Shown here: piece by piece, positions 1,853 through 17,972 of the stretch | Layout of the letters: every line of letters starts with the position of its first letter | Numbering within the stretch: the stretch's first letter is position 1 | Virus record (IMG/VR): IMGVR_UViG_3300042904_000368 | Coordinates: 1-64,000 of that record | Strand: one strand, 5' to 3' | DNA length: 64,000 nt | Source of the DNA: a virus | Program-made: the position numbers and the translations under genes | Notes under the pieces: generated by a model | Seen by the model: the letters and a program-made list of their open reading frames with translations, nothing else | Database searches by the model: none | Told to the model about the DNA's origin: nothing

Positions 1853-2203
1853 CTATGCAGGCGTTAGGAGCGTTGGCGCAGCGACCACCTCCAACAGCGG
1901 GCACCAGCTACGCTCCACCTTCCAGCGTTCGGCCCCTAACGCCCCGCATACTTCGCAGATGTGGTGCCCGATGAGAAAGTCTTCAGTAGCGACAACATCC
2001 GGGTAGCCTGCTTCGAACGACGCAATATCCCCTTTATCGCTTGGCGACAGTGACTCCCCTCGCCAGCAATGATCGCCCGTGGGCGTGGAGCATTCACCGA
2101 TTTTCAGCCCGTAGGACTGGATGATGTCGCGCGAGTTGTCTTCTATTGGGGTGCTATATGCCCATCTATCCTCGCTCCCTCTCCGCCCACTGCACGCAGC
2201 CAA
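1853..2203 (-). CDS. Small Cys-containing hypothetical protein
   Basis: An open frame of 116 codons from a TTG start; the true start is uncertain because no ribosome-binding site fits it well, and the first 12 residues look unlike coding sequence. The C-terminal part holds a CEVCG pair and nearby Cys and His (HHICEVC, WCPL), compatible with metal binding. It is the last gene of the leftward accessory array and converges on the late module. Confidence 0.45.
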   Translation of the reverse strand: MAACSGRRGSEDRWAYSTPIEDNSRDIIQSYGLKIGECSTPTGDHCWRGESLSPSDKGDIASFEAGYPDVVATEDFLIGHHICEVCGALGAERWKVERSWCPLLEVVAAPTLLTPA

Positions 2204-2221
2204 AGGAAGCGGCCGTGACCA

Positions 2222-2401
2222 CTAGTTGCCCAGGCGGTGCAGCTTCTTCCGCAGTTCTGCCAGGACCGGGTTGTCTTCCTTGAGTCCCTGCGCTTCCGCT
2301 TTCCGCAGCACGTTTAGCAGAAACTCGCGCTGCCGCGTGCGGCCTTCGGCATCGGAAGCAATCCAGGTATCGGGCCTCTCCAGTGGTGTTTCAGCTTCCA
2401 T
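2222..2401 (-). CDS. Small charged hypothetical protein
   Basis: A 59-residue acidic and basic alpha-helical protein, ending LRKKLHRLGN. The start ATG lies inside the end of the upstream gene (11-bp overlap), so translation is probably coupled. The helix from about residue 25 (REFLLNVLRKAEAQG) is amphipathic. No family recognised. Confidence 0.7.
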   Translation of the reverse strand: MEAETPLERPDTWIASDAEGRTRQREFLLNVLRKAEAQGLKEDNPVLAELRKKLHRLGN

Positions 2402-3263
2402 ACTCGCCCTCCGTGACCGGCTTATATCCCTCGCAGCCGCACCGCCACTCATCCCCATCCACACTACGCAGATAGGCTGTACAGGCTCCGGTATTATCTT
2501 CGTGGTCGCCGACACTGTGATCGCAGGCGCATCTGGGAACCACGTCCACCCAAGGCTCCTCGTTCGCTCGTAGTCGCTCCGCCGCGTAACGGAGAACGGA
2601 GAAAAAGTCGGTGGACACGTTTGGGATCGCCGTCTTGCAACGCACCGCCCACCGCTCCAAAAGTGCGGCGCACCGCTCCCTTTCCTCTGCCCGCACTTGC
2701 TCCAAGAGACCCGCCAAATGCCCCTCGACGGGCGCATTTGCGTGTGCGTCTATCGCGTCTTGCAGTTCGCTATCGGCCTTGCGGTCGCGTTCTGTCGGAA
2801 TGGCTGTTGCCACTTTCCACGCTGCGTGTTGCTCGATGGCTGCTGCCTCTAGCCTTCTCAACGTCTCTTTCGTCATCGCTCCCCCGTTTCTCTCCACCCC
2901 CGCCTCACCCGCCGCGAGCAAAGAGCCACCTTCTTTACCATCCCCATCCCGCTCTTTCAGATACGCGAACAGTGCCCGCAGGAAGTCGCTGCCTAGCCCC
3001 GCTTCCTCACCGGGGTGAGCGTGGATTATGCCCCTGAAGGCGAAGTATAGATCGGCGCCTTCAGGCCGGATGACGCAAGCGGCGGCGGCATCTACCACAG
3101 CGGACAAAACCCCCTCTGCCTGGCGGGCGCGACGGCTGGAGGTGATGAACGCCTTGGCCTCTTGATCGGAGAGCGCGTGCCTGAGTGCGCGTTCTGCCAG
3201 TGCCTCAAACTCGGCATCGGAGAGGCGTTCGGGTGGGGCGTCGATGGTGGTGGTCTGGGTCAT
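2391..3263 (-). CDS. Phage accessory protein with C-terminal Cys/His knuckle
   Basis: A 290-residue protein; ATG at 3263 follows AGAGGAA at good spacing. The N-terminal 130 residues are helical and acidic. The middle (residues 150-235) is a long charged helix with RAEERERC, like many phage early proteins. The C-terminus carries the pattern CxCDHxxxDHxxxxGxC...CxC, a likely zinc knuckle. An internal ATG at 2876 follows GGGGGAG in the same frame, so a second shorter product or a fusion of two ancestral genes is possible. The start overlaps the previous gene by four bases. Confidence 0.8.
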   Translation of the reverse strand: MTQTTTIDAPPERLSDAEFEALAERALRHALSDQEAKAFITSSRRARQAEGVLSAVVDAAAACVIRPEGADLYFAFRGIIHAHPGEEAGLGSDFLRALFAYLKERDGDGKEGGSLLAAGEAGVERNGGAMTKETLRRLEAAAIEQHAAWKVATAIPTERDRKADSELQDAIDAHANAPVEGHLAGLLEQVRAEERERCAALLERWAVRCKTAIPNVSTDFFSVLRYAAERLRANEEPWVDVVPRCACDHSVGDHEDNTGACTAYLRSVDGDEWRCGCEGYKPVTEGEYGS

Positions 3264-3535
3264 TCCGGTTCCTCTGGGCAATTCTCCCCATACAGATACC
3301 TTCCCGCGTGCGTCAGGGAATACCCCTCAACAGCGATTACCCCGAAGCGATCCTTTCCTAGCGTGAAGGTTTCCGCCTCGATCCACCCCTTGGCGACTAA
3401 TCGCTCTGCCAGCCGCTTCGGTAGTTTGGCGACCTGCTGCTTGCCAGTGACCGCCGAGCTGACTTCCTGCACAAACAGCGCACTCAGGGCGGCAAGCTCC
3501 GCCTTCCCAACGCGCGGCGCTACTTCAGCTTCCAT
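3260..3535 (-). CDS. Small hypothetical protein
   Basis: A 91-residue protein whose ATG at 3535 follows AAAGGAGCAGGAGC. It looks like a small winged-helix fold: helical first half (KAELAALSALFVQE), then a KLPKRLAERLVAKGW helix, then a short beta hairpin ending GRYLYGENC. This could bind DNA, but the match is only by general shape. It overlaps its neighbours on both sides by 4 and 11 bases. Confidence 0.75.
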   Translation of the reverse strand: MEAEVAPRVGKAELAALSALFVQEVSSAVTGKQQVAKLPKRLAERLVAKGWIEAETFTLGKDRFGVIAVEGYSLTHAGRYLYGENCPEEPE

Positions 3536-3905
3536 GCTCCTGCTCCTTTCTCTCGCCGCTCCCTGGCTGGGCGGGCGGGTCGCTGATGGTGGCTGGATAC
3601 ACGCCGCGAATGACGATCCTCTCCAGCATTTGCTGTGCGAAGACAGCCATTCTCTCGGCATCCAGTTCCTTCTGTTGGGGTGTGCGATGGTCGGGCGGAA
3701 TCTGGATAGGCATTGCGTAACGTCGCAAGGTGTAGGCTGGAGCGCCCTCTTCACTTGGCCCTAGAAGCTCTGCGGGCAATCTCATTTCGTGGGTGAGCCG
3801 CTCCAGTTCCGCCTCTCTTTCACGCATCATCCGCAAGAAGGGCAACTCCCTGGCAGACGGCGTGATTGCCCTGTAGATGAAATCCCTGATCTGATCCTCA
3901 TTCAT
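3525..3905 (-). CDS. Hypothetical accessory protein
   Basis: A 126-residue protein with a helical N-terminus (MNEDQIRDFIYRAITPSARE) and a charged helix ending around residue 45. ATG at 3905 overlaps the TGA of the upstream gene (ATGA), a sign of translational coupling. The C-terminal 20 residues are Pro, Gly and Glu rich and probably disordered. No family recognised. Confidence 0.75.
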   Translation of the reverse strand: MNEDQIRDFIYRAITPSARELPFLRMMREREAELERLTHEMRLPAELLGPSEEGAPAYTLRRYAMPIQIPPDHRTPQQKELDAERMAVFAQQMLERIVIRGVYPATISDPPAQPGSGERKEQEHGS

Positions 3906-4312
3906 GGCATAACCCCCACGGGGAATATCTCCCGCTCCGAGCAAACTGGCGTGCGTTCCTTGCCGTCCACGGTGAACCTCACGACCCCGGATTTTCCAAC
4001 TCCGCCGTGCTGCCAGCCGAGGAGTTCGGCGGGTCCGTCGTAATCCCCGAACGCGAACTGTGCCACAAGGCGGATCGGGATCGGTCGCTCTTTGCTAGTT
4101 CCTCTCCCCGCTTGATTGCGTTCTGAAGCATCCCCCGCAGGCTCGTGCGATCCAGGCCGGTTAACTCTGCCAGCCGCCCCTCGCTGACTTCCCCTGCGGC
4201 CCACGCGATCAGCAGGTCCGTCAACTCCCCCGGCGATAGTTCGGCTGGGATCATCGGTGGCAACATCGCTAACTTCCTTTCCACAGTGCGGACAGACCAT
4301 TTCTCGCTCCAC
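3902..4312 (-). CDS. Zinc-finger start plus C-terminal domain in one frame, interrupted by another frame
   Basis: This 136-codon frame begins with a convincing zinc-ribbon start (MEREMVCPHCGKEV) and ends with a convincing domain (about the last 60 residues, including FRTVDG-like strands). The middle, roughly 4250-4090, looks non-coding in this frame, while frame 3979-4266 looks coding there with high G/C at third positions. Either two genes overlap, or one gene was split by two frameshifts (real or from sequencing). The end overlaps the next ATG by four bases. Confidence 0.5.
   Translation of the reverse strand: MEREMVCPHCGKEVSDVATDDPSRTIAGGVDGPADRVGRRGSQRGAAGRVNRPGSHEPAGDASERNQAGRGTSKERPIPIRLVAQFAFGDYDGPAELLGWQHGGVGKSGVVRFTVDGKERTPVCSEREIFPVGVMP
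3979..4266 (-). CDS. Nested helical protein
   Basis: ATG at 4266 follows GGAAAGGAAG with 6-7 bases spacing, and this Shine-Dalgarno lies within the GKE codons of the overlapping zinc-finger frame. The 95-residue product has a well-formed helical core (DLLIAWAAGEVSEGRLAEL, then DRTSLRGMLQNAIKRGEEL) that reads like a small helix-turn-helix protein. The last 25 residues (Ser, Thr, Pro rich) look like read-through of the other frame. Good evidence that the middle of this region codes in this frame. Confidence 0.6.
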   Translation of the reverse strand: MLPPMIPAELSPGELTDLLIAWAAGEVSEGRLAELTGLDRTSLRGMLQNAIKRGEELAKSDRSRSALWHSSRSGITTDPPNSSAGSTAELENPGS

Positions 4313-4330: not shown

Positions 4331-4618
4331 CTAGGCCGCGTTGGTGGTGGCGGCGTCAACAGGTGCGAATACCGCTCGATACCAGGCGTTCGGATGGTTG
4401 GCGCCGATCCATTCGTACGCGACCCGGCCCAAACACATCGCCAGCGCCACCTCTATCTGTGGTGGGTAGCCGCTCATCGGATCGTTCCAGCGTTTGGTCC
4501 ACGGCTCGAACGCTGGGTGCGCCTTGGCTGCTTGCACGATGGATTTCGCATCCTCTTCCCAGACGCCCTGGCTGTAAATCCACTCCACAGCCCATTCCTC
4601 CACGGTTTGCTCTCTCAC
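4331..4618 (-). CDS. Hypothetical protein, Trp-rich
   Basis: A 95-residue protein starting at GTG 4618 behind GGGGGAGGAAATC. It contains many aromatic residues (EEWAVEWIYSQ, WTKRWND, YEWIGANH) and a KxxP-type central helix. The composition and codon use are clearly coding. It lies 18 bp upstream of the zinc-finger/nested gene pair. No family recognised. Confidence 0.8.
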   Translation of the reverse strand: MREQTVEEWAVEWIYSQGVWEEDAKSIVQAAKAHPAFEPWTKRWNDPMSGYPPQIEVALAMCLGRVAYEWIGANHPNAWYRAVFAPVDAATTNAA

Positions 4619-4660: not shown

Positions 4661-4801
4661 TTACTTCGGCGTTGCGATCTTGGGCCAAATGCTCGGAATA
4701 GACTTCCGTGCCCCACAGCCGGGAGTCGTACATCTCCACACGCATTCCTTCCCGCCCTGCGAAACCATCTCCATTGAAGGATGAGTGCATCCGCCTGCCA
4801 T
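4661..4801 (-). CDS. Small zinc-ribbon-like protein
   Basis: A 46-residue protein starting at ATG 4801 behind AGAGGGAGGGATT, a strong ribosome-binding site. It has CTHP near the start, then CVWRCTTPGCG, giving four Cys with His that could hold one zinc ion. A longer alternative frame on the same strand (4356-4790) is rejected because its composition is Gly/Arg-rich shadow. Confidence 0.65.
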   Translation of the reverse strand: MAGGCTHPSMEMVSQGGKECVWRCTTPGCGARKSIPSIWPKIATPK

Positions 4802-5102: not shown

Positions 5103-5315
5103 TTAATCGATTGGCAGCAGGCCGCGCTCCTCAAGTTCCTGGTTCGCTAAAATTTGCAGGTAGCGAAGATCGGATTCGGCTTGCTGTAAAGCCTCCGTAT
5201 CCAGGTCTTGCAGCCAGGATCGCAACCCGGTTTCTAGATCATCGCCGCCTGGCTCTAACACCACCGTGAGAACCGCTCCAACTAACTCCCGTGCCCGACT
5301 TGTCTCTTTAGTCAT
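5103..5315 (-). CDS. Small acidic helical protein
   Basis: A 70-residue protein; ATG 5315 follows GGAAAGGAAATTGG. The sequence is mostly one or two acidic amphipathic helices (LETGLRSWLQDLDTEALQQ, then YLQILANQELEE). Short acidic proteins in such accessory clusters are often anti-defence or regulatory factors, but nothing specific is seen here. Confidence 0.8.
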   Translation of the reverse strand: MTKETSRARELVGAVLTVVLEPGGDDLETGLRSWLQDLDTEALQQAESDLRYLQILANQELEERGLLPID

Positions 5316-5376: not shown

Positions 5377-6003
5377 TTAGGAAAGCCCTTGTGCTACAGC
5401 GTACTCTGAACCGTGACTTTGAGAGCAGAACGCAAAGCCTAAGCTCACTCGTTCTCGCTTCACGTACCGCCCGCACCTAAGGCAACGACCGGACCACTTC
5501 AGCGGCTTCGTGGACGCAACCAGGGCCTTGTCCGCTCGTAGGCTTTCCGGCGATACCCCCAACTCTTCCAGATCGTCTCCGTCCTTTTCCGCTGAACGCA
5601 GGATGAGGTACTTCACGAACAGCCCCAAGGGTAGCTCCAAGAATGCCTGTCGCCGCACGCCCAAGGCAGCTACGAACTCCACGAACTCTTCCATGATGTC
5701 GCTGGCGTTCACGAACGGATTGAACTCGTAGCGGCGGCATGGCTCGTAGATGCGGGTAGACTGAGCGTGGTGGGTAACTTTCCCGTCAGCATCAACTTCC
5801 AGGTATTCTCCGTTCCCCAGGTCGATCCGATATTCGCTGCCCCGCTTTGCCTCGAAACGACGCGGAAGCAGAGAATGGGAGCTACCGTCCGTATAATCCC
5901 AGGATGAAATCGACGTGGCGGCAGAGGAATTCAGCACCCAACTGCAAGTAGTAGCCGTGCCAGAAGTGCTCCAAGCGCTCAACCTGTATTGATAGCCCGT
6001 CAC
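5377..6003 (-). CDS. Hypothetical protein with C-terminal Cys cluster
   Basis: A 208-residue frame; GTG 6003 overlaps the stop of the upstream gene (GTGA) and follows GGGAGAA. The first 45 residues are Ser/Thr-rich and poorly coding-like, because another frame (5882-5974) looks coding there. From about residue 60 the protein is clear: short beta strands, then a helical part (IMEEFVEFVAALG), then CLRCGRYVKRER...FAFC, a likely zinc ribbon at the end. The true start may lie inside. Confidence 0.7.
   Translation of the reverse strand: MTGYQYRLSAWSTSGTATTCSWVLNSSAATSISSWDYTDGSSHSLLPRRFEAKRGSEYRIDLGNGEYLEVDADGKVTHHAQSTRIYEPCRRYEFNPFVNASDIMEEFVEFVAALGVRRQAFLELPLGLFVKYLILRSAEKDGDDLEELGVSPESLRADKALVASTKPLKWSGRCLRCGRYVKRERVSLGFAFCSQSHGSEYAVAQGLS
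5882..5974 (-). CDS. Possible 30-residue aromatic peptide overlapping the next gene
   Basis: A TTG-started frame (5974) of 30 codons, five bases after AGGTTGAG, coding for an aromatic and His-rich peptide (MEHFWHGYYLQLG, then CRHVDFILG). Third positions are markedly richer in G/C here than in the overlapping frame 5377-6003, which suggests that this frame is the coding one in this stretch. Confidence 0.4.
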   Translation of the reverse strand: MEHFWHGYYLQLGAEFLCRHVDFILGLYGR

Positions 6004-6323
6004 GCTGTTTCTCCCGTTGGGTTTAGCCACAGGTCGCGCAGGAACTCGGCGGCAGAACTGGTCTTCATTGCCAGGTCGTTGTGCTTCCAGACGTTGCGCT
6101 TATTCACCCGCACGGTGGAGTAAGAACTGTTCCAGCGCTCCTCAGTGATTACTCCCGCCACGATTACCCGGAAATGGATATGCCCACAGATCGGACACTC
6201 TACCTCGTGGTTGCCCTCGATATCGAAATCAATCCGAGCAAGGAAGTTCTTGCCGCAGTTGTGGCAGTGCATGTCCGTGCGGCACAGGCCCTTCCCGCTG
6301 TTCAGGTCCAAACTTTCACCCAT
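6000..6323 (-). CDS. Zinc-ribbon protein
   Basis: A 107-residue protein from ATG 6323 (CTGGAG eight bases upstream). Residues 17-60 contain HCHNCGKNF and ECPICGHIH, two CxxC pairs spaced as in a rubredoxin-type zinc ribbon. The rest carries a short strand region and a C-terminal amphipathic helix. The stop overlaps the next GTG by four bases. Role unknown; protein or nucleic-acid binding is likely from the fold. Confidence 0.8.
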   Translation of the reverse strand: MGESLDLNSGKGLCRTDMHCHNCGKNFLARIDFDIEGNHEVECPICGHIHFRVIVAGVITEERWNSSYSTVRVNKRNVWKHNDLAMKTSSAAEFLRDLWLNPTGETA

Positions 6324-6370: not shown

Positions 6371-6850
6371 CTAAGCTCCCAACTTGGCGAGCATCCCTTC
6401 GAACCGATCTTTGGTCTTCATCAACTTGCGGAACTGGCGCGGCTTCAGCTTGGAGATATCCACAGCGGACGCCCGCAGATTCAGGGACTCTGCAACCTTC
6501 TGCGCGGCACTGATCTGTTGAAGCGCAGAGACGAACTTCGCGCCCGGTTTCGCCCCTTCTTTGATGACCCGATCCCAATCGAACGGGGTCTTGTCGTGCC
6601 AGGTCCACTTCTCGCCCGCTACTGCTTCGCCGGACGTCCAAGAAAAAGACTTCTTGAAATCGGCCTCTGGCATCGCGTGGCGGTATTCGGTTGGCTCTGC
6701 GCCGGTCGTCTCGAACATCGAGAACACGACCCGTTCGCCTTCCGTGCTTTCCACGAAGATCAAGCTGCCGTCTTCGTGTTCAGCCCAACACCCTGCCGCT
6801 AGCCGGTCGCGGTTGACGGGGTTAAACCCTGGAACATCCTCAGTCGCCAT
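6371..6850 (-). CDS. Hypothetical protein with basic helical C-terminus
   Basis: A 159-residue protein; ATG 6850 follows AAAGGACCGAGACA. Two parts are visible: a beta-rich N-terminal half (residues 1-75, with strands such as SLIFVES and RVVFSMFE) and a helical C-terminal half rich in Lys (SKLKPRQFRKLMKTKDRF). The layout is like small phage early proteins that bind a host partner or nucleic acid. No family recognised. Confidence 0.85.
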   Translation of the reverse strand: MATEDVPGFNPVNRDRLAAGCWAEHEDGSLIFVESTEGERVVFSMFETTGAEPTEYRHAMPEADFKKSFSWTSGEAVAGEKWTWHDKTPFDWDRVIKEGAKPGAKFVSALQQISAAQKVAESLNLRASAVDISKLKPRQFRKLMKTKDRFEGMLAKLGA

Positions 6851-6935: not shown

Positions 6936-7397
6936 CTAGTCAGCGCGGTCTTCAACGTCCTGAAGTGCGGCTAGAGCGTCGGCCCAGAGGCCCGCGTGTT
7001 CAACTGGCCGCGTGGACGGCTGATACGCCTCACAGAGAGCCAGCAGAGCATCGCGTGGCGCAGACTCCACAGTGGGCTCCTCCGCTGCTAGGCCCATCGA
7101 CTGTGCTAGGACGCGGGCCTTTTCCAGCAATCTCTCTGCCCTCGCCAACTCCTCGGCTCTTTTGTCGCGAAGCTTCTTTTTCTGCTCTAGCCAATCGGAA
7201 ACCGCAGCATTCGGCGTGGTAAAGAACCCGTCGAAATGGGCCTCGTGCTTGTTAACCTGTGCCGCGCCTGCCGTTGCCCGACAGGCCTTGAAACGGTATT
7301 GCTTCGCGGTTTCCGTGGCCTGGATTTCGAGCAGGCGCGGCTCGTCGCTGCTGTAATCTGGACATCCAACTCGGTAAAGCGTCACTGTCTCTGCCAT
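6936..7397 (-). CDS. Hypothetical protein with coiled-coil
   Basis: A 153-residue protein from ATG 7397 (GAGGATTAG upstream). Residues 1-65 form a compact beta-type domain with one Cys; residues 75-110 are a strong charged coiled coil (EQKKKLRDKRAEELARAE). The C-terminal 40 residues are acidic. The 85 bp downstream, before the next ATG, hold no gene. Confidence 0.8.
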   Translation of the reverse strand: MAETVTLYRVGCPDYSSDEPRLLEIQATETAKQYRFKACRATAGAAQVNKHEAHFDGFFTTPNAAVSDWLEQKKKLRDKRAEELARAERLLEKARVLAQSMGLAAEEPTVESAPRDALLALCEAYQPSTRPVEHAGLWADALAALQDVEDRAD

Positions 7398-7467: not shown

Positions 7468-8034
7468 TCATAGCGGCGGAGCCTCCCCGTTCGCCCTGTG
7501 CCTTCCACACCGCCACTCACCCGGCGCAATCTCCTCCGCCCCTTCGCTTCCGCACCACTGCCACACCGGACGGCCCGCTTCCCGAACCTGCTCCTGACAC
7601 CAACCCTTCCAGGCCAGCCAACGGCGCATATAGGTGTCGTGGTCTTCACCGGGTATCGATTGAAAGCGCGGTGGTAAGGGTGCTGCGGGTTCAGTGCTAA
7701 CCACCTGCGTCTTCGCTGCTTCCGCTACCCGGCACTCCTCTTCGAACCCTCGCAGGATCCGCTCGTTCTCCGCGATCTCCGCCTCTGTGAGGGGCACCAA
7801 CTCCCAGCCCAAGGGGCGCACGTGGTCTTCCGGGCCTAGCCAGCGCGAGGCCGGGTTCCACGGAAAAGCCGCCTTCTTAATCAGCACGCCATGCGAAACG
7901 GCTGCCGCATCGAACTCCACATAGACCATCCGGCGGGTATCAAAGTCTCGCGTATGGTAGACGGTGCCGGTGTAGGCTTGCCCCTCATAGCAGCCTTCCA
8001 CGCGGTCTCCGATTTGGATGGTCGTTTCGCGCAT
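7468..8034 (-). CDS. Hypothetical protein with SH3-like N-terminus
   Basis: A 188-residue protein; ATG 8034 follows GAGGGAGAAGTAG. The N-terminal 45 residues (IGDRVEGCYEGQAYTGTVY, then strands ending MVYVEFD) have the pattern of a small SH3/Tudor-like barrel. A helical middle with two Glu-rich helices follows. The C-terminus is Trp- and Cys-containing (WQWCGSEGAEE...WRCGRH), possibly metal-binding. Function unknown. Confidence 0.8.
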   Translation of the reverse strand: MRETTIQIGDRVEGCYEGQAYTGTVYHTRDFDTRRMVYVEFDAAAVSHGVLIKKAAFPWNPASRWLGPEDHVRPLGWELVPLTEAEIAENERILRGFEEECRVAEAAKTQVVSTEPAAPLPPRFQSIPGEDHDTYMRRWLAWKGWCQEQVREAGRPVWQWCGSEGAEEIAPGEWRCGRHRANGEAPPL

Positions 8035-8076: not shown

Positions 8077-8340
8077 TCAAAACTCTTCCCTTACTCCGCA
8101 TTTCGAGCAAATACCAAGGACACGGTATGCCCAGCGTTTCCTGCTCCCGTCCCACACGTCCTCATTGGTGCGCCTGGTTAAAGGGCGATACTCCAGCCCC
8201 CGGCTTCCGCATTCGGAACAAGTGGCGTTTTTGCAGATCGCGCGATCATCCGCGATTTCAGCCTCGGTCATACCTGGCGGAGTAGAGGGGTGCCACCCCT
8301 CCGAATCGCCGAGAACTTCCGCGCAGGGATGATGGGTCAT
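8077..8340 (-). CDS. Zinc-ribbon protein
   Basis: An 87-residue protein with two CxxC pairs (CSECGSRG and CSKCGVREEF) separated by about 35 residues, the standard zinc-ribbon layout. The start codon overlaps the upstream stop (ATGA), showing coupling to the preceding gene. Confidence 0.75.
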   Translation of the reverse strand: MTHHPCAEVLGDSEGWHPSTPPGMTEAEIADDRAICKNATCSECGSRGLEYRPLTRRTNEDVWDGSRKRWAYRVLGICSKCGVREEF

Positions 8341-8621
8341 GCCGTTGCTCCGCCGTCAATAATCTGCTTCAGCAACCCCGCCCCGCCCCAGTGGCACTCG
8401 ACAGCGCATTCGATGGTGCGGATATGCTCGCAGATGTTGTCCATTCCCCCGGCTTTCCTGTCGCGCTCATCCGAGCAACCGCCACATTCGCAAGCGCGGC
8501 AGTTCTCTTCAGCGGAGATAATGCGGGTCACACCAAACACGCGCCCCTCACTATCGACCACTTCCCAGAAGGTGGGGGATAGCGGCCTGGCAGTCATTTC
8601 CTTGGGGGTAATCATCTCCAT
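8337..8621 (-). CDS. Cys-rich hypothetical protein
   Basis: A 94-residue protein whose N-terminus reads MEMITPKEM, with two closely spaced ATG candidates (8621 and 8615) behind GAGGAGCCGGAAGAG. The middle has a dense Cys cluster (CRACECGGCSDE), followed by CEH and ECHWGG, enough ligands for one or two zinc ions. No family recognised. Confidence 0.75.
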   Translation of the reverse strand: MEMITPKEMTARPLSPTFWEVVDSEGRVFGVTRIISAEENCRACECGGCSDERDRKAGGMDNICEHIRTIECAVECHWGGAGLLKQIIDGGATA

Positions 8622-9090: not shown

Positions 9091-9167
9091 CGCTCTCTCC
9101 TCGGCGGTAGGGGTTGCCGCCCGTTGCGGTAAACTCTCGGCGGGGGTTCTCCCCAACTGACACCTTT

Positions 9168-9232: not shown

Positions 9233-9233
9233 G

Positions 9234-11471: not shown

Positions 11472-11742
11472 CATCGAAACGACGCTGGAAATCAACGACT
11501 ACGGCAACGATCCAGACGCCAAGGACCTGGCAGGCGCGGATCGACTGGATCAGGTGTTGGTGGAATTCAAGGTCAAAAACAACCACAACGGCACCGTAGC
11601 GGGCGGAATGCTCTGGTTGCGGGAGATCAACGAAGCGCTGCGTGAACACGGTTTCGAGGTGGTGCCCATCGAAATCCCGCCCGCTGAAGAACAACTCGAA
11701 GGTTTTAACTGCCGCGCTGGGTTCGCGGGGATGGGGGATTAG
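11464..11742 (+). CDS. Acidic hypothetical protein
   Basis: A 92-residue protein with an overlap of eight bases with the preceding gene. Its sequence is acidic with paired short strands and a single helix (LREINEALREHGF). No family recognised; an anti-restriction or inhibitor protein would fit its size and charge, but that is a guess. Confidence 0.75.
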   Translation: MGDIETTLEINDYGNDPDAKDLAGADRLDQVLVEFKVKNNHNGTVAGGMLWLREINEALREHGFEVVPIEIPPAEEQLEGFNCRAGFAGMGD

Positions 11743-11745
11743 GCA

Positions 11746-11976
11746 GTGGATACTGCGAAGTGGCTATTTCTAGCAGGGCTGGCGTGCGTGCTGGTGTTTA
11801 CCCTGATCGGAATAACTATCCGGCCATTCTCGAACGTCACGGGCGTATCAGTCGCCGTTAAGAAATCCATAGATGCAACGCTCTTGGGCGGGATCATCCT
11901 GGCAGGACTCGGCCTCTCGCTGTGGGCGATGGCTGCGTGGATATGGGTGGCAACTCGCCTGTTTGGCTGGAGATAG
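11746..11976 (+). CDS. Two-helix membrane protein
   Basis: A 76-residue protein from GTG 11746 with two hydrophobic helices (residues 6-26, FLAGLACVLVFTLIGI, and 47-70, GGIILAGLGLSLWAMA) joined by a short polar loop. The gene is followed two bases later by another membrane protein gene, which suggests a paired membrane complex. Confidence 0.7.
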   Translation: MDTAKWLFLAGLACVLVFTLIGITIRPFSNVTGVSVAVKKSIDATLLGGIILAGLGLSLWAMAAWIWVATRLFGWR

Positions 11977-11978
11977 CA

Positions 11979-12134
11979 ATGAATATCTGGGAAGGTGTCG
12001 CGCTTCTCGCGGTCGCCAGCCTTACATCCTTCACCCTCTATCTACTCTGGGCGCGGCGGATGAGCCGAACGATCCTGCACGCTCTCGACAACCTGCCCGA
12101 TCAAATCATCATTGCGGAGATTGAATACCAATGA
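11979..12134 (+). CDS. Single-pass membrane protein
   Basis: A 51-residue protein from ATG 11979; the first 25 residues are hydrophobic (EGVALLAVASLTSFTLYLL) and are followed by positive residues (ARRMSR), giving a membrane helix with the tail inside. The start lies directly after the preceding stop. The next gene overlaps it by four bases. Confidence 0.65.
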   Translation: MNIWEGVALLAVASLTSFTLYLLWARRMSRTILHALDNLPDQIIIAEIEYQ

Positions 12135-12427
12135 CACAACAAACGGAAATCTACCCGACCCGCACTAAGCGCGTGCGTCGTTTCCAGGTCGGCAGTAATT
12201 ATCTTTCTCGGTTCTTCACCGCCTGCCATCAAGGGGAGCGGCTACGGATCGTCGGTTGGCCGGATGATGCCTGGGTATCGGGCCTGCAGGTCGATGTCTG
12301 CACAAACTCTCTTGTGCTATACGTCGAAAGCGACACGTTTGAACCCATCGCGGAAGGTGAGCTGATCCCCTCGCATCCGATGCAAATGTCCATTATTCAC
12401 GGAGAGGATTGGGACAACGAGCGATGA
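12131..12427 (+). CDS. Hypothetical protein
   Basis: A 98-residue protein with a basic N-terminus (RTKRVRRFQVGSNYL) and then an alternating strand pattern. The region around residues 35-75 could be a small beta barrel. Its last codon overlaps the next start by four bases. No family recognised. Confidence 0.75.
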   Translation: MTQQTEIYPTRTKRVRRFQVGSNYLSRFFTACHQGERLRIVGWPDDAWVSGLQVDVCTNSLVLYVESDTFEPIAEGELIPSHPMQMSIIHGEDWDNER

Positions 12428-12780
12428 ATCCCAACGTTGCGCGCTGCCCTCTTTGCCGAGGAGAAGGCAGCGACTCCACTAGCACGCCTACGAACCCGGT
12501 TAAGTGCCGACACTGCCACGGGAAGGGGCATGTAGAAGAGCTTCCCAAGGAAGAACGCCTCACTCCACCTGTACCGCGCCAACCCGACACATCCCCTGAA
12601 CGCCTGGCAGAAATCCAGGCCGCGCAAGCGATGGTCAGTCCGCACGCCCTCCACCAAACCACCTTCGCTATCATACAAGACCTGCTGGCGATGATTGAAG
12701 AACTAGAACACTTCCAATACAAGGGAAAGCAATCCAATGGACACAGCGACCGAAGCCCAGATTATCTCGACCGCCCCTAG
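12424..12780 (+). CDS. DnaJ-type zinc-knuckle protein
   Basis: A 118-residue protein whose first 40 residues contain CPLCRGEG and CRHCHGKG. These are two CxxCxGxG repeats, the unit of the DnaJ cysteine-rich domain, enough for a single zinc site. The rest is a helical tail. A J-domain is absent, so this is not a full DnaJ; small stand-alone zinc proteins of this type are common in phages. The gene overlaps the next by 44 bases. Confidence 0.75.
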   Translation: MNPNVARCPLCRGEGSDSTSTPTNPVKCRHCHGKGHVEELPKEERLTPPVPRQPDTSPERLAEIQAAQAMVSPHALHQTTFAIIQDLLAMIEELEHFQYKGKQSNGHSDRSPDYLDRP

Positions 12781-13351
12781 CCTGCGCCCCTTGGAACGCC
12801 TAGAGCAGGCGGTATGCGGCTACAACCACCTTTACACCGAGTCCGCCGCACTCCATCAGAAACTCTTCCCGGAATACAACGAATACGCGGGCGGGCCAAA
12901 CTGGAAAGAGTATCTACCCGATGACGCGGACCCTGCGGATGTGAAGCGGTATGAAGAAATCGAGGAAGTCGTAGACCTGGCTAATGAGGAGTTCTTCGCC
13001 GCAGTTTCCGCTTACACTGCCGCACCAGAGAGCGAGAAGGTAGCAGCGCGGTTAGCAGAGGCTGTACGCACTTGTCCTAGCGTGCGAAATGTGGTTCTGC
13101 AAAATCAGTGGTACCGGAGATGCCTGGAAGACGCGCAGGCCACTCTCACGGAATTACAGCCATCGGTAATCGGGCAATCGCGGACAGAAGCCGTGCAGTT
13201 CCTTCGTCGCTGGACGGCACACCACCGAGAGCGAGGGGAAGCGGAATTTGCACGCGAGCTGCTCCCGGCCATTGATCTACTCTGCGAAGGCCGAGAGCCC
13301 ACCACGGCTCCCACTCCCGCCCCGGCGGCGGAGAAAGCGGGTGAGGGGTGA
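12737..13351 (+). CDS. Helical accessory protein
   Basis: A 204-residue protein that is almost all helix, with acidic segments (EIEEVVDLANEEFF) and a basic segment (FLRRWTAHHRERGE). ATG 12737 lies inside the end of the preceding gene. The C-terminal Pro/Ala-rich end is encoded by the 40-bp repeat shared with 10999-11038, which also supplies the next start. Confidence 0.75.
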   Translation: MDTATEAQIISTAPSLRPLERLEQAVCGYNHLYTESAALHQKLFPEYNEYAGGPNWKEYLPDDADPADVKRYEEIEEVVDLANEEFFAAVSAYTAAPESEKVAARLAEAVRTCPSVRNVVLQNQWYRRCLEDAQATLTELQPSVIGQSRTEAVQFLRRWTAHHRERGEAEFARELLPAIDLLCEGREPTTAPTPAPAAEKAGEG

Positions 13352-13354
13352 TGG
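13315..13354. repeat. 40-bp GC-rich repeat, copy 2
   Basis: One base differs from copy 1 at 10999-11038. It again covers the end of one gene and the ribosome-binding site and start of the next, but it is read in another frame in the upstream gene, so the similarity is of DNA, not of protein. Confidence 0.8.
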
Positions 13355-13638
13355 CACAGTGGAAGAAGGGTTGCTGCGGCGTTTGCCGCGCTTACGAAGA
13401 GATGGAGCAAAGCCGGGTGGATCGCTTCAATGCCGAGAACCCCATCGGCACACCCGTTCGTTATTGGCCTGGCGAGCGGCGCGGGGAAGGTGTCCTGTCG
13501 CAGACGCGAAGCCAGGCGGCTATTCAAAGCGATCACGGTAGCGTGTGGGTGGAAGGAATGGCCGGGAGTGTCGCGCTCACCCACGTTGAGGTTTTGCCCC
13601 GCCAGGCCGGGGAGTTGCCGGAAGGGGAGGATAGGTGA
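13351..13638 (+). CDS. Small Cys-containing hypothetical protein
   Basis: A 95-residue protein; the start ATG 13351 comes from repeat copy 2. It has CCGVCRAYEEM at the start, then a beta-type middle with PVRYWPGERRGEG, suggesting a small barrel such as SH3-like KOW folds. It ends with a four-base overlap with the next gene. No family recognised. Confidence 0.7.
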   Translation: MAQWKKGCCGVCRAYEEMEQSRVDRFNAENPIGTPVRYWPGERRGEGVLSQTRSQAAIQSDHGSVWVEGMAGSVALTHVEVLPRQAGELPEGEDR

Positions 13639-13922
13639 ACCACCGTGACTTTCTGGGAGTGGTTGTGGCGTCCTTACGCAAGCGGACGCGGGAGAAAGAA
13701 GTTGAAGGTGCTGTTACCGCCGCTGTGGCTGATGGCAACGCGGGTTTCAGCGAAATCCTCAGCCACATTCACTACAACTTCTCTTGGGGCGTAGAAAGCC
13801 CGGAGGTGTGGGCGGCTTTAGAACGACTGGAATTGCGCGGCGTGCTGCAACGAGTGAAGGGCAACCGAGGCAAAACCAAAGTGCAAACGTGGGTGCTTTT
13901 CGACTGGACCGCCGCCCCCTAG
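13635..13922 (+). CDS. Possible winged-helix protein
   Basis: A 95-residue protein from GTG 13635. The order helix (residues 8-32), helix (SEILSHIHYNF), helix (SPEVWAALERLELRG) and a strand pair at the end (VLQRVKG...QTWVLFD) matches a small winged helix-turn-helix of the kind that binds DNA. The call rests on this pattern alone. Confidence 0.7.
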   Translation: MNHRDFLGVVVASLRKRTREKEVEGAVTAAVADGNAGFSEILSHIHYNFSWGVESPEVWAALERLELRGVLQRVKGNRGKTKVQTWVLFDWTAAP

Positions 13923-13969: not shown

Positions 13970-14272
13970 ATGGCCCTGATGATCCGCGTAACGATGCCGG
14001 ACAAGAGCGTATGGCAGGTTCCGGCGAGCGTAGTGAGCGAGGATGCCATCGCCTACTACAGCAAGCAAGACGACTTCACCGAAGAGGAAGCAGCGGATTG
14101 GCGCAAGGATACGGGCGAAATTCTCGACTGGGGCAAAAACAACATGAACTGGGAAGATGTTGCCGCCCACGCTACCCGCTTGCCAACTAAGCCCCCTGCC
14201 GCTCCCGATTACCAGGAAGGCTGGGTGAACGGGAAGTGGAAGTTCGTGATGGTCGAGGATGAGGCAACCTAA
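13970..14272 (+). CDS. Hypothetical protein
   Basis: A 100-residue protein. ATG 13970 follows AGGAAGGAGATACCA, a very strong ribosome-binding site. The N-terminal 25 residues form two strands (IRVTMPDKSVWQVPASVV), followed by an acidic helix. Its last base is the first base of the next gene's ATG. The earlier part of the same open frame is a shadow. Confidence 0.8.
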   Translation: MALMIRVTMPDKSVWQVPASVVSEDAIAYYSKQDDFTEEEAADWRKDTGEILDWGKNNMNWEDVAAHATRLPTKPPAAPDYQEGWVNGKWKFVMVEDEAT

Positions 14273-15105
14273 TGACAAGCGAAGCAGAACCAACCACCCC
14301 CGCCAGCGCGACCGAGCCGGGAGCGTGCCCTTCTTGTGGTGGCGAACGGCACTATGAGGAGCCGGAAGGCGGCGGAGTAGATACCGTGTGCTCCACCTGC
14401 GGGCGGCGTGGAGCCGGTGACGATCTGAAAGAGTATGTGGTAAGTCCCGCTGCCGAGCCGGGGGAGCCGGAGTGGTTGGTAGCGATGCGGGACCGAGCGA
14501 AGGAACGCCGGTTTGCCCTTGACGACCTGCCGCACCTCACCACGCTCCTGAATGAACACGCCTCCGCCCGCTCTCAGGTGGCGCGGCTGGAAGCAGAGTT
14601 GGGGGAGCAAGGGAGAGCGTTGGCAAGCGTGTGCCTACCCGGCGAGTCCCGCGTAGATTGCATCATTCGCCTCATCCGGGAGCGCGACGAAACGCAAAGG
14701 GAGTGGGAAATTCTGCGAGGCTGGCAGGAGTGTGTTCGTGCCGCCCTGGAAGGCGAAGAGGATGGCGCAGACGCCAACATTTTCGAGACAATCCGCCGCA
14801 TCGTTCGAGAGCGAGACATTGCTCATTCGCACATCCGCGCTGCCACCCAACCCCAGTCCGAACCCGCCGAGACGTGCAGCGAGTGCGAACGGCTGTATGG
14901 ACTAATGCGTGACTTTGCCAGCGCAGGCCGCGCCCTCGCTGATGCCAAGTATGCGGCAGGTCGTGCGAATGCTGAGTTGAGGGACGCAGAGGCGGCTAGC
15001 GGGCGTGTGGTGACGGCACTCTACGCTGAAGCGGCCCTACATCCGGCAACCGCCACCAACCAGCCGCCAGCCGGGGCGGAGCAGGCGGAGGTGAAAGATG
15101 TTTAA
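14272..15105 (+). CDS. Zinc-ribbon plus coiled-coil protein
   Basis: A 277-residue protein. Residues 18-45 hold CPSCGGERHYEE and CSTCGRRG, a classic zinc ribbon. From residue 90 to 235 it is a charged coiled coil, with repeated IRERDETQ and IVRERDIAH blocks and a further CSECERLYG pair in the middle. The layout resembles phage proteins annotated as Lar-like with a long tail. The C-terminus is Ala/Pro rich. It overlaps the next gene by eight bases. Confidence 0.8.
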   Translation: MTSEAEPTTPASATEPGACPSCGGERHYEEPEGGGVDTVCSTCGRRGAGDDLKEYVVSPAAEPGEPEWLVAMRDRAKERRFALDDLPHLTTLLNEHASARSQVARLEAELGEQGRALASVCLPGESRVDCIIRLIRERDETQREWEILRGWQECVRAALEGEEDGADANIFETIRRIVRERDIAHSHIRAATQPQSEPAETCSECERLYGLMRDFASAGRALADAKYAAGRANAELRDAEAASGRVVTALYAEAALHPATATNQPPAGAEQAEVKDV

Positions 15106-15400
15106 GACCACTTTACCGTGCGGCTGTGGGGTGAAGGTGTACGTAAGCGGTGACGTGCTTTCGGATCGGGAAACGTATTGCGAAGAGGGGCAGGTGCTTT
15201 GGGATGCCTGGCGTGCCGTGGGCGAGAACCCCCCTCAAGACCCCGCACAGATTGAAGAGTGGCGACATCGTAACGCGGCGGCATTCAACGCCTACTGCCA
15301 GCATTACGAGCAGCACATCGGCAAGATCATCCAGCACGCCACCCAACCGACCCCGCCGCCCGCTGCTGGGCAGGAGAGGGAGCTTGCTGATGACGCTTGA
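15098..15400 (+). CDS. Small Cys-containing hypothetical protein
   Basis: A 100-residue protein that starts with PCGCGVKVYV and has one CEEG pair. Two helical stretches follow. A zinc site would need the Cys and a His in the second helix (HYEQHIG). The gene overlaps both neighbours by 8-11 bases. Confidence 0.75.
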   Translation: MFKTTLPCGCGVKVYVSGDVLSDRETYCEEGQVLWDAWRAVGENPPQDPAQIEEWRHRNAAAFNAYCQHYEQHIGKIIQHATQPTPPPAAGQERELADDA

Positions 15401-15692
15401 GTATGAGCCGGTGGAGTTGGACTGGCAGCGAGTAGCCTTCGTGCGCGAAATGGCGCGGGTGCGAGGCGGCACTCAGATCCGCGCCGAAATCTGGTCACCC
15501 ACGGCATCACCTGATATTCACGCTTTTGGCGGTGAACTGGAAGTGTGGGGAGAGGGGTCGGGTTTGGCTCGAAAAACCTTTGTCGGCGGGAGTCTAGAGG
15601 ATGTGCGAGGGGCTATCCACGACGCCTGCGGCCAACTTCTTGCCGCCCTTTCCCTGGAGCGGCCTGGGGAGAGGGGGCCGGGGAATGGCTAG
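15390..15692 (+). CDS. Hypothetical protein
   Basis: A 100-residue protein from ATG 15390, overlapping the previous gene by 11 bases, with CAGGAGAGGGAG upstream. A basic helix (WQRVAFVREMARVR) is followed by strands and another helix. It is read here because third positions and composition are coding-like, unlike the larger open frame 15150-15692. Confidence 0.7.
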   Translation: MTLEYEPVELDWQRVAFVREMARVRGGTQIRAEIWSPTASPDIHAFGGELEVWGEGSGLARKTFVGGSLEDVRGAIHDACGQLLAALSLERPGERGPGNG

Positions 15693-15897
15693 GGATACTC
15701 GCCGTTGCGTGCGGTGCGACACGGAAGTTGCCGTGGATGAGATGGAAGAGGGCTACAGCGAAGGCTACTTGGGCGGACGCTGGCATTGCGCGGACACCGC
15801 CACCTGCGACGCGAGGTATCAGCATCGCCACTTTCCGCGTCGTCCTCCACGCCCTGTTTTGCCATCCACACAGGAGATGACCCCCGATGCTCACTGA
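15685..15897 (+). CDS. Small Cys/His-rich protein
   Basis: A 70-residue protein from ATG 15685 with CVRCDTEVAV early and CADTATC later, then a His-Arg-rich end (YQHRHFPRRPPRP). This gives the ligands for one zinc ion. The start lies inside the preceding gene and the end inside the next. Confidence 0.65.
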   Translation: MARDTRRCVRCDTEVAVDEMEEGYSEGYLGGRWHCADTATCDARYQHRHFPRRPPRPVLPSTQEMTPDAH

Positions 15898-16381
15898 ACC
15901 AACCACAGCCGCCAACCCGGCCCCCGCCAGCGAGGGAAAGGAGAAGCTAGAGCAGGCGGTGGGGATTTTGAACCGGGAGCGGCACAGAGGGCGCTGTAAT
16001 TGGGGTGTTAACGTCTCGAAAACGGGTCGGGTCAGAGCTACCGCCGCAGCGGACGGATCGAACGGGAAGACGACCCTTGCCATTGACTTCTTCGAAGATG
16101 CAGATCAGGCTATCGCCATTGCCGAGAAGCTAGACCCCTCTTTCCGCATGGATGCTACCTTGCCTTCACTGGAGTGGGAGCTATACGATGACGGCTTCAT
16201 CATCCGTGTTCCAGAAGAAAGGTTCATTGTCCGCGCCTGGTGCCGAAGGAAACGGGATGAGTGGGAAGGGTCGCTCGCCTTGGGCGTCTACACGCTCTAC
16301 CGCCACCGAGGCACGGACATAGAAACTGTCAAAGCCCTAACCACCCGGCGGCTGGGGCTGCTGCTGGCGGCGCTGGGGTGA
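15887..16381 (+). CDS. Hypothetical protein, paralogue of a late-region gene
   Basis: A 164-residue protein. The core around residues 20-35 (EQAVGILNRERHRG) and FFEDADQAIAIAEKLDP match, in order and spacing, the 62-residue protein at 54938-55126 (DEAVAILNREKHR, then EFEAIAIARQYEP). The segments between them (Trp, Cys-rich) differ. This is therefore a phage-internal gene family of unknown role, with one copy in the early array and one among tail genes. Confidence 0.75.
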   Translation: MLTEPTTAANPAPASEGKEKLEQAVGILNRERHRGRCNWGVNVSKTGRVRATAAADGSNGKTTLAIDFFEDADQAIAIAEKLDPSFRMDATLPSLEWELYDDGFIIRVPEERFIVRAWCRRKRDEWEGSLALGVYTLYRHRGTDIETVKALTTRRLGLLLAALG

Positions 16382-16387: not shown

Positions 16388-16777
16388 ATGAGCGAGCCTG
16401 TGGTAATAACCCCTGAAGAAGCACGGCGGTTGGCGCAATCCTGTCAGCGATGCGGTGGCAGTCGCAAGGTGTGGGATTTATACACCGACCCGAAGAATCC
16501 CGTACAAGTCGAATGCCTTGTGTGTCGCGATGCCTGGACTATTGCAGAGGGGAAGGGCATGGTAGCCAAAAGCGGCGTCTGGTCGCAGGAGAGGCCCGCT
16601 TCTGCGGGCTGGTACTGGTTCTCGGAGCAGGGCTACCTGCCGCCCAAGGTTGTTAATCTGTTTCAGCATCCGACGTTGGGGCTGTTTTGCGTCCACTTCA
16701 GCTATCCGGACCATGCCGTTTTACTGACACGTTGCGCCGGCCTGTGGCAGCGTATCGAGGAACCAACCCAACCATGA
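16388..16777 (+). CDS. Zinc-ribbon protein
   Basis: A 129-residue protein from ATG 16388. The N-terminal 50 residues contain CQRCGGSRKVW and CLVCRDAW, a zinc ribbon. The C-terminal 60 residues (YWFSEQGYLPPKVVNLF, then strands) are a separate beta domain. The start overlaps nothing; TTG 16385 is an in-frame alternative. It ends with a four-base overlap with the next gene. Confidence 0.75.
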   Translation: MSEPVVITPEEARRLAQSCQRCGGSRKVWDLYTDPKNPVQVECLVCRDAWTIAEGKGMVAKSGVWSQERPASAGWYWFSEQGYLPPKVVNLFQHPTLGLFCVHFSYPDHAVLLTRCAGLWQRIEEPTQP

Positions 16778-16977
16778 CCCAGGCCCAAGCCCTCGCCTAC
16801 CTCTCCCGGCTCCTGGCCCGCCTGCCGCAGGTGCTGGCTCACGTGGGCGAAAACCCAGGCCGGAAGGGGAGTTTTCGCCTGCTCTGGGACAAGCCGCCAA
16901 CGGTTGCGGAAGCGCGGATCGCCCATGAAGTACTGCTGGAGTGCGTGAATGAGAACAACCGAACGGGGCGGGCCTGA
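16774..16977 (+). CDS. Small helical protein
   Basis: A 67-residue protein, coupled by ATGA to the preceding gene. It consists of two amphipathic helices (ALAYLSRLLARLPQVLAHVG; VAEARIAHEVLLECVNEN), so a helical-hairpin dimer is plausible. The next gene starts inside it. No family recognised. Confidence 0.7.
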   Translation: MTQAQALAYLSRLLARLPQVLAHVGENPGRKGSFRLLWDKPPTVAEARIAHEVLLECVNENNRTGRA

Positions 16978-17326
16978 TAGCCCTACCAAACCCTACCGCC
17001 TCTGGCAAATCTCCCCCGATCCCGAACGACCCTGGTGGGCCTGGCGTGTGGTGGGGCGTACTCGCCACGAAGCCCTGGGCGTGGTGGCGGGATATGGAGA
17101 TGGCGTGGTGTGGGCAGACCATCGAAGCAACGGAACGCGCTACTCCCTGGCACACCCCGCCATTATCAAGCCGATCCCATCCACCGAACGCGTGGGCCAG
17201 TGGAGCGACGATGAGGGCGAGGAAGACCCAGACAGCGAGACCGGCCGCACCCTCTGGCTAACGGCGAGAGAGTGGGTGTCGCGGTGTCGGGAACGCGGCG
17301 AAAACCATGTGACCGCGCCGGGCTGA
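16949..17326 (+). CDS. Hypothetical protein
   Basis: A 125-residue protein with a Trp-rich beta domain (residues 15-75; RPWWAWRVVGRTRHEA, GVVWADH) and an acidic linker followed by a C-terminal helix. The overlap with the previous gene is 29 bases. No family recognised. Confidence 0.7.
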   Translation: MRTTERGGPDSPTKPYRLWQISPDPERPWWAWRVVGRTRHEALGVVAGYGDGVVWADHRSNGTRYSLAHPAIIKPIPSTERVGQWSDDEGEEDPDSETGRTLWLTAREWVSRCRERGENHVTAPG

Positions 17327-17336
17327 GGAGCGAATG

Positions 17337-17543
17337 ATGTTTAACCAGATCCCCTCTCCCCGACTGGCCCTCTGGCGGCTCTGGTGGTGGCTGGTGGGAA
17401 AGAAACCGCCCTGGTGCGTGACGCCGGAAGAACGGGCGGTGATTGTGACGCCCGACCGGCTACACCCAGCTATCCAGCGATTTGCCGCGAGTGAGCGCAC
17501 TGGGCGCAATCCTAACCACCACTCACCAGCACCCCCTGCCTAG
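17337..17543 (+). CDS. Small basic protein, Trp-rich start
   Basis: A 68-residue protein with WRLWWWLVGKKPPWC near the start, an aromatic segment of unusual density that could lie at a membrane surface. ATG 17337 was preferred over ATG 17334 because GAGGAG is then at a normal distance. The C-terminal 20 residues are flexible. No family recognised. Confidence 0.6.
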   Translation: MFNQIPSPRLALWRLWWWLVGKKPPWCVTPEERAVIVTPDRLHPAIQRFAASERTGRNPNHHSPAPPA

Positions 17544-17594
17544 CCTGCGGGAGAGGGCCGTGAGCGCCAGCAGCCACGCTTGCCTATACAACCA

Positions 17595-17972
17595 ATGCAT
17601 CCACAGAAACCACCCCCCTACCCCGACGAAGGCCCCGATGGAGAATCAAGGCCCCAACCCGCCGCTCTCCCCGACCCCTCGCTAGAACAAGCCGAGGTCG
17701 CAATCCGCCAGTTCGCGCGGGACATGATGCTGGGCAGGGAGTTGACCGTAGAGAGGGCGGAGGCCCTAGATTCCCGCTCCCTCTTCGCCTACCGCCTGCA
17801 ATTCCTGGCTCACTTCTGCGTGGTCGGCATTCCTGGATTGCCGTTGTGGGCGTTGCGCGAGAGCCAGGGGTCGGACCTGGACCCCTGGGATTATCCACCC
17901 CTTACGGTTGACGGGGAAACGATGAGCTGGTTTCTCGCCACCGCCCGCACGAGGATGCTGCTGGCGGGGTGA
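17595..17972 (+). CDS. Last gene of the rightward accessory array
   Basis: A 125-residue protein; the Pro-rich N-terminus precedes a helical domain (LEQAEVAIRQFARDM, RAEALDSRSLFAYRLQF) and an acidic end. A TTG at 17580 would extend it by five residues. The next gene is on the other strand and ends 36 bp away. Confidence 0.65.
   Translation: MHPQKPPPYPDEGPDGESRPQPAALPDPSLEQAEVAIRQFARDMMLGRELTVERAEALDSRSLFAYRLQFLAHFCVVGIPGLPLWALRESQGSDLDPWDYPPLTVDGETMSWFLATARTRMLLAG

What the first reader, a model, noticed from the sequence alone, without database searches (positions are those of the whole stretch)
1853..17972. Two divergent arrays of about 45 tiny overlapping genes, rich in zinc-ribbon proteins, under one control region
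The span holds about 16 small proteins with CxxC pairs or Cys/His clusters, two-helix membrane proteins, a Gam-like nuclease inhibitor and a ribbon-helix-helix regulator. Nearly all genes overlap by four bases or a few more. The arrays are driven from a shared promoter region. This is the layout expected of an early accessory or counter-defence locus, with many candidates of unknown role.
Basis: partly seen in the sequence, partly recalled or inferred. Interest (0 to 1): 0.72.

Follow-up and report, generated by a model that had tools for sequence, protein, structure and literature searches.

The report
Phage's divergent arrays of tiny genes
This is the fast-changing accessory region of a temperate bacterial virus: two back-to-back rows of about 43 tiny, mostly unknown genes run from one shared switch. 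The layout is common in such viruses, and only one gene gives real evidence of protecting the virus from its host.

Summary
The window is nearly all of a circular 64,676-bp temperate phage genome. At 1853-17972 lie 17 minus-strand and 26 plus-strand genes (median about 95-107 aa), diverging from a 188-bp region (9091-9278). Overlap was overstated: 17 of 25 plus junctions, but only 5 of 16 minus junctions. Cysteine is doubled, but only six proteins have two CxxC pairs (not significant).

New here:
- Two host-type sigma-70 promoters with an inverted 18-bp operator-like pair (16/18; 0 of 300 shuffles), and a weaker third copy inside the first plus gene.
- An eight-gene cassette (11035-13350), the lowest-GC stretch of the genome, flanked at gene junctions by 41-bp direct repeats (40/41).

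Profiles identify one Gam-like DNA-end protector. One further domain sits beside recombination or replication genes elsewhere. Lar-like matches are weak, and PADLOC gave none below 0.01. The ribbon-helix-helix call failed its profile test. One of 44 array proteins had a blast homologue in the relatives searched.

Best reading: an ordinary accessory region under its own switch, separate from the lysogeny switch, gaining genes at junctions. Counter-defence as the dominant role is possible but unshown.

The parts
9091..9278 (.). shared 188-bp control region between the two arrays
   Evidence: non-coding gap between divergent genes
9168..9196 (-). promoter of the minus array: TTGACA-17-CATAAT
   Evidence: 11 of 12 consensus bases
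9234..9262 (+). promoter of the plus array: TTGCCA-17-TACAGT, extended -10
   Evidence: 9 of 12
9170..9187 (-). operator-like site 1 (ATACAGCGATTCGCCATA), in the spacer and -10 of the minus promoter
   Evidence: 16/18 inverted repeat with site 2, 0 of 300 shuffles
9224..9241 (+). operator-like site 2 (ATACAGCGAGTTGCCATA), over the -35 of the plus promoter
9360..9377 (+). weaker third site (2 mismatches) inside the first plus gene
10998..11038 (+). 41-nt direct repeat, copy 1, spanning a gene junction and carrying the ribosome-binding region and start of the next gene
   Evidence: 40 of 41 identical to copy 2
13314..13354 (+). 41-nt direct repeat, copy 2, at another gene junction
11035..13350 (+). 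eight-gene cassette between the direct repeats; lowest-GC stretch of the genome (57.3% against 61.2%)
9279..9536 (+). 85-aa first gene of the plus array; candidate DNA-binding autoregulator, ribbon-helix-helix by appearance only
9511..10182 (+). Mu Gam-like DNA-end protection protein, 223 aa
10230..10490 (+). 86 aa, Cys cluster
10487..10744 (+). 85 aa, no assigned function
10741..11028 (+). 95 aa, two membrane segments; C-terminus made by repeat copy 1
11035..11259 (+). 74 aa, no assigned function
11259..11471 (+). 70 aa, no assigned function
11464..11742 (+). 92 aa, no assigned function
11746..11976 (+). 76 aa, two membrane segments
11979..12134 (+). 51 aa, one membrane segment
12131..12427 (+). 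98 aa, no assigned function
12424..12780 (+). 118 aa, two CxxC pairs, PHROG 8027 (unknown function); the DnaJ-like zinc-finger match is attributed to it by its CxxCxGxG motifs
   Evidence: (E=1.3e-6)
12737..13351 (+). 204 aa, no assigned function; C-terminus made by repeat copy 2
13351..13638 (+). 95 aa, N-terminal CCxxC
13635..13922 (+). 95 aa, no assigned function
13970..14272 (+). 100 aa, C-terminal domain of PHROG 17928; stand-alone or fused in other phages near DnaB or Erf genes
14272..15105 (+). 277 aa, N-terminal zinc ribbon and coiled coil; weak Lar-like match
15098..15400 (+). 100 aa, CGCG motif
15390..15692 (+). 100 aa, no assigned function
15685..15897 (+). 70 aa, CxxC
15887..16381 (+). 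164 aa, no assigned function
16388..16777 (+). 129 aa, zinc ribbon (two CxxC)
16774..16977 (+). 67 aa, no assigned function
16949..17326 (+). 125 aa, no assigned function
17337..17543 (+). 68 aa, weak coding signal
17595..17972 (+). 125 aa, last gene of the plus array
8698..9090 (-). 130 aa, first gene of the minus array; the array protein with a homologue in a capsid relative (46% over 73 aa)
8337..8621 (-). 94 aa, Cys-rich
8077..8340 (-). 87 aa, zinc ribbon
7468..8034 (-). 188 aa, C-terminal Cys cluster
6936..7397 (-). 153 aa, no assigned function
6371..6850 (-). 159 aa, no assigned function
6000..6323 (-). 107 aa, zinc ribbon; weak Lar-like match
   Evidence: PHROG 6422, E=0.0011
5377..6003 (-). 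208 aa, C-terminal CxxC...C
5103..5315 (-). 70 aa, no assigned function
4661..4801 (-). 46 aa, Cys-rich
4331..4618 (-). 95 aa, no assigned function
3979..4266 (-). 95 aa; competes with an overlapping frame 3902-4312 that begins with a CPHCGK motif; possibly one frameshifted gene
3525..3905 (-). 126 aa, no assigned function
3260..3535 (-). 91 aa, no assigned function
2391..3263 (-). 290 aa, C-terminal Cys cluster
2222..2401 (-). 59 aa, no assigned function
1853..2203 (-). 116 aa (TTG start), Cys-rich; uncertain gene

Best explanation
This is the accessory region of a temperate tailed phage. Two operons of small, rapidly exchanged genes are transcribed outward from one 188-bp control region by host sigma-70 RNA polymerase. 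A regulator, most likely the 85-aa product of the first plus gene acting on its own operon, binds the inverted 18-bp sites. These cover the spacer and -10 of one promoter and the -35 of the other, so binding would shut both arrays together after an initial burst. The switch is separate from the lysogeny switch at 22290-23009. The products are a mixed set: DNA-end protection by the Gam-like protein, probably other DNA-metabolism helpers, membrane proteins, and many small zinc-binding proteins that may bind host proteins or nucleic acid; some may counter host defence. New genes enter at gene junctions, as the repeat-flanked low-GC cassette suggests. Shown: layout, promoters by consensus, the repeats, Gam-like similarity, near-absence of homologues in relatives. 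Inferred: early timing, which protein binds the sites, repression, cassette insertion, product roles.
For: Circular temperate phage genome: 127-base end overlap, integrase, small regulator genes, portal and capsid. Promoters. Inverted sites 16/18 with 0 of 300 shuffles; the degenerate 17-mer occurs only at these two places in the genome; third copy in the first plus gene. Cassette repeats 40/41 at junctions and lowest GC. Gam-like match. Only 1 of 44 array proteins has a blast homologue in the relatives searched; phmmer adds only marginal hits. The 13970-14272 domain occurs near Erf and DnaB genes elsewhere. Capsid relatives also carry runs of tiny genes, some with zinc ribbons. Paired sites of 16-18/18 recur at divergent regions of three relatives.
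Against: No expression data. The regulator's fold is unconfirmed, and the repressor-like protein at 19936-20427 could be the one that binds. Of 31 divergent regions tested, about a quarter have such repeats, with or without tiny-gene arrays, so the repeat is not specific to arrays. The promoter consensus scan of the whole stretch found no more sites than shuffles.
Confidence: 0.7

Rival explanations
1. A dedicated counter-defence island: most of the tiny proteins neutralise host restriction, CRISPR or other immune systems, expressed at once on entry and then shut off by an Aca-like autoregulator.
For: Gam-like protein, which in Mu blocks RecBCD loading at DNA ends (PMC12407980); weak Lar-like zinc ribbons; strong host-type promoter plus operator-like sites at the head. 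In archaeal viruses early accessory genes share such a regulated promoter, and a screen of predicted genes found an inhibitor of subtype I-A CRISPR-Cas (PMC11065993).
Against: No enrichment of recognised anti-defence families; PADLOC nothing below 0.01; other matches are to unknown families or below cut-off; the one other informative domain points to DNA recombination or replication.
Confidence: 0.15
2. Lysogenic conversion region: the arrays are expressed from the integrated prophage and alter the host (superinfection exclusion, regulation) rather than acting early in infection.
For: Host-type promoters independent of the lysogeny switch at 22290-23009; small membrane proteins.
Against: Two long operons including a Gam-like DNA-end protector, which is useful on DNA entry rather than in a lysogen.
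Confidence: 0.1
3. Much of the array is not coding, or is decaying sequence over-read as small genes.
For: Some members have weak coding scores, and 3902-4312 / 3979-4266 look like one frameshifted gene.
Against: Most have positive codon scores, Shine-Dalgarno-like starts and, in the plus array, short overlaps typical of translational coupling.
Confidence: 0.05

Closest known systems
Accessory / host-takeover regions of temperate tailed phages (e.g. runs of small unknown genes in cluster K mycobacteriophages)
   Same: Long run of small, mostly unknown, tightly packed genes with high turnover in a temperate phage with integrase and a separate immunity switch.
   Different: Here two arrays diverge from one 188-bp control region with paired operator-like sites, and the proteins are richer in Cys than the rest of the genome.
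Regulated anti-defence regulons of archaeal viruses (SIRV2 early genes with Aca8; PMC11065993)
   Same: Many unrelated small accessory genes behind a shared strong promoter and regulatory sequence, with a small candidate regulator gene in the set.
   Different: Bacterial-type promoters, long operons rather than mostly single genes with their own promoters, no proven anti-defence gene, regulator family not established.
Start-associated sequences of cluster K mycobacteriophages (PMC3203893)
   Same: A repeated DNA element sits just upstream of the starts of several small genes.
   Different: There 13-bp sites recur at a subset of genes, about half with 17-bp inverted repeats; here a 41-nt element has two near-identical copies plus a shorter GGCGGCGGAGAAAG core at one more junction, and the pair flanks a low-GC cassette, suggesting recombination rather than a regulatory site.
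Mu Gam family (Phage_Mu_Gam, PHROG 2205)
   Same: 9511-10182 matches the family profile over about 110 residues.
   Different: Weak similarity; it sits in a long accessory operon of a phage with an integrase rather than a Mu-type transposable phage.

Membership tests
Mu Gam-like DNA-end protection protein (9511-10182) | significant profile match | tested here: met
   PHROG 2205 E=4.9e-6 over residues 31-140; Pfam Phage_Mu_Gam 0.0012
Mu Gam-like DNA-end protection protein (9511-10182) | DNA-end binding and RecBCD block | not testable with these tools
   needs biochemistry
Ribbon-helix-helix regulator (9279-9536) | match to an RHH profile | tested here: not met
   Pfam RHH_1 no match at E<=10; none in the full Pfam scan
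Ribbon-helix-helix regulator (9279-9536) | strand-helix-helix dimer fold | tested here: inconclusive
   single-sequence monomer model gives one helix, mean pLDDT 74, pTM 0.31
Lar-type restriction alleviation proteins | profile score above the curated cut-off | tested here: not met
   PF14354 hits at 14323-14406 and 19736-19834 are below cut-off (16-18 against 28.6 bits); PHROG 6422 E=0.0011 for 6000-6323
Counter-defence island | several genes of known anti-defence families | tested here: not met
   one Gam-like protein only; PADLOC catalogues defence, not anti-defence, proteins
Counter-defence island | shared regulated promoter region at the head | tested here: inconclusive
   promoters and inverted operator-like sites are present; regulation itself not shown
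Temperate tailed phage accessory region | temperate phage genome with genes not shared among relatives | tested here: met
   integrase, regulator genes, portal, capsid; 1 of 44 array proteins with a blast homologue

The most novel reading that the evidence does not exclude
A self-contained regulon of several dozen new anti-host proteins, many of them zinc-ribbon binders, run by an autoregulated bidirectional switch independent of the lysogeny switch, and growing by insertion of gene cassettes at repeated junction sequences.
Probability: 0.12. Interest if true: 0.65.

Novelty: new member of a known kind. Interest (0 to 1): 0.27.

Why it matters
Most phage genes of this kind are unknown. A genome where one defined 188-bp switch appears to control about 43 of them makes the whole set testable at once, and the repeat-flanked cassette gives a concrete trace of how such genes may be gained. 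In itself the region is of an expected type.

Tried and rejected
Close relatives of the Gam-like and first plus-array proteins in IMG/VR: none found. Exact search for the 41-nt repeat core and for the operator pair in IMG/VR: none. Near-DNA search in phage records: none. The idea that the inverted-repeat control region is a hallmark of tiny-gene arrays: tested on 31 divergent regions, not specific. The idea that the junction repeat is a genome-wide start-associated element: only three junctions share GGCGGCGGAGAAAG, all in the plus array; GGAGAAAG is weakly enriched before starts. Dispersed host-type GC-rich palindromes at gene starts: seen by eye, not supported as a family. Rfam: only the tRNA. 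Structure of 13970-14272 alone: low confidence, pLDDT 43, unusable. Host assignment through capsid relatives: 1 of 400 in the phylum of a Caldilineaceae bin, 14 of 84 (mostly distant) in the phylum of a Poribacteria bin, so the host stays unknown.
Full report
What the sequence is. The window is 64,000 of the 64,803 bases of an IMG/VR virus record. The record's first and last 127 bases are identical, so it is read as a circular assembly of 64,676 bp. It encodes an integrase (20929-22014, minus), two opposed small regulator genes with a 195-bp gap (22290-22598 minus; 22794-23009 plus, HTH_31 E=1.7e-5), a repressor-like protein (19936-20427), DNA methyltransferase, UvrD-type helicase, RNase H, RuvC-like resolvase, portal and major capsid protein. 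It is therefore a temperate tailed phage. Its capsid relatives lie in metagenomes and in a few bins, among them Chloroflexota and Poribacteria; the host is not known.

The observation. A simple codon- and RBS-based gene caller plus inspection gives 17 minus-strand genes (1853-9090) and 26 plus-strand genes (9279-17972); an 18th minus frame (3902-4312) competes with 3979-4266. Overlaps dominate in the plus array (17 of 25), not in the minus array (5 of 16). Cys is twice as frequent as elsewhere, 15 of 44 proteins have four or more Cys, and 6 have two CxxC pairs; the per-gene contrasts with the rest of the genome are suggestive but not significant. Two proteins have two membrane segments and one has one.

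The control region. 9091-9278 holds a near-perfect sigma-70 promoter for the minus array (TTGACA-17-CATAAT) and a fair one for the plus array (TTGCCA-17-TACAGT with extended -10). Within it are two inverted copies of an 18-mer, 9170-9187 and 9224-9241, identical at 16 positions; none of 300 dinucleotide shuffles of the region reached this. Each copy is itself an imperfect 17-bp palindrome of half-site TAYRGCRA; that degenerate palindrome occurs only at these two places in the genome, though it was derived from them. A third copy with two mismatches lies inside the first plus gene. Site 1 covers the spacer and -10 of the minus promoter, and site 2 covers the -35 of the plus promoter, as expected for repressor sites that act on both arrays. 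The lysogeny region 22599-22793 does not contain the motif, so the arrays appear to have a separate control. Which protein binds is inferred. The first plus gene is the natural candidate, but the ribbon-helix-helix label failed the profile test and the structure model was uninformative.

The cassette. A 41-nt sequence occurs twice at gene junctions, 10998-11038 and 13314-13354, with one difference. It supplies the end of one gene and the ribosome-binding region and start of the next, and the upstream genes read it in different frames at the two places, so it is DNA, not a protein motif, that was copied. The eight genes between the copies form the lowest-GC stretch of the genome, 57.3% (6 of 624 overlapping windows as low). 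The simplest reading is insertion of a gene block by recombination at a shared junction. This is inferred; no relative without the block was found, and no other viral contig holds the repeat core.

What the proteins do. Scans of the 44 frames against Pfam, PHROGs, PADLOC and NCBIfam gave few informative matches. 9511-10182 is Mu Gam-like; Mu Gam dimers bind DNA ends and block RecBCD loading, and can make a phage sensitive to the Gabija defence (PMC12407980). 13970-14272 matches the C-terminal domain of PHROG 17928; in Xanthomonas phage CP2 the same domain ends a 511-aa protein next to an Erf-type annealing protein, and in Cronobacter phage JK004 it stands alone, one short gene away from a DnaB-type helicase, so a role in DNA recombination or replication is likely. 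Lar-like matches are below cut-off. Zinc-ribbon and DnaJ-like matches say only that the proteins probably bind zinc.

Relatives. Only one array protein, 8698-9090, has a blast homologue (46% over 73 aa) in the capsid relatives compared at that step, where it lies amid tiny zinc-ribbon genes of another phage; phmmer adds two marginal hits in other relatives. Several relatives carry their own runs of tiny genes, with different sequences. Divergent regions of three relatives (IMG/VR records 3300005466_000003, 3300037470_000663, 3300005546_000002) also hold inverted 18-mers of 16-18 matches spaced 57-73 bases; in the last, two such regions share the same element. But of 31 divergent regions tested about a quarter show this, and not preferentially those with tiny-gene arrays, so it is a general feature of some phage divergent promoters rather than of this kind of locus.

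Verdict. The finding is real in outline and ordinary in kind: a fast-evolving accessory region of a temperate phage. The paired operator-like sites and the repeat-flanked cassette are the parts worth keeping.

Noticed in passing
28925-29114: Large imperfect hairpin (79-nt arms, 77% complementary, 32-nt loop; z = -8.4 as single-stranded DNA) with repeated GGTTACGCGG-like units, at the end of and just after a 619-aa primase-like gene (27192-29051, no family match): candidate replication origin.
   Followed up: partly
18455-18496: Perfect 17-bp inverted repeat with 8-bp loop (ATAAGGGGCCTGTTATC) in a long stretch with little coding (about 18365-18919) after the plus array: bidirectional terminator, operator or attachment site.
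   Followed up: no
22290-23009: Likely lysogeny switch: two small opposed regulator genes (the plus-strand one matches HTH_31) around a 195-bp gap with TTGTTG-type repeats, unlike the array's operator.
   Followed up: partly
33931-34608: Protein that looks like a phage-encoded sigma factor by its C-terminal sequence; no PHROG match, distant relative in another capsid relative.
   Followed up: no
3902-4359: Two overlapping frames on the minus strand, one starting with a CPHCGK motif, look like one gene broken by a frameshift.
   Followed up: no
36349-36420: Single tRNA-Asn (GTT) gene.
   Followed up: no
48792-48837: 46-bp imperfect palindrome inside the major capsid gene.
   Followed up: no
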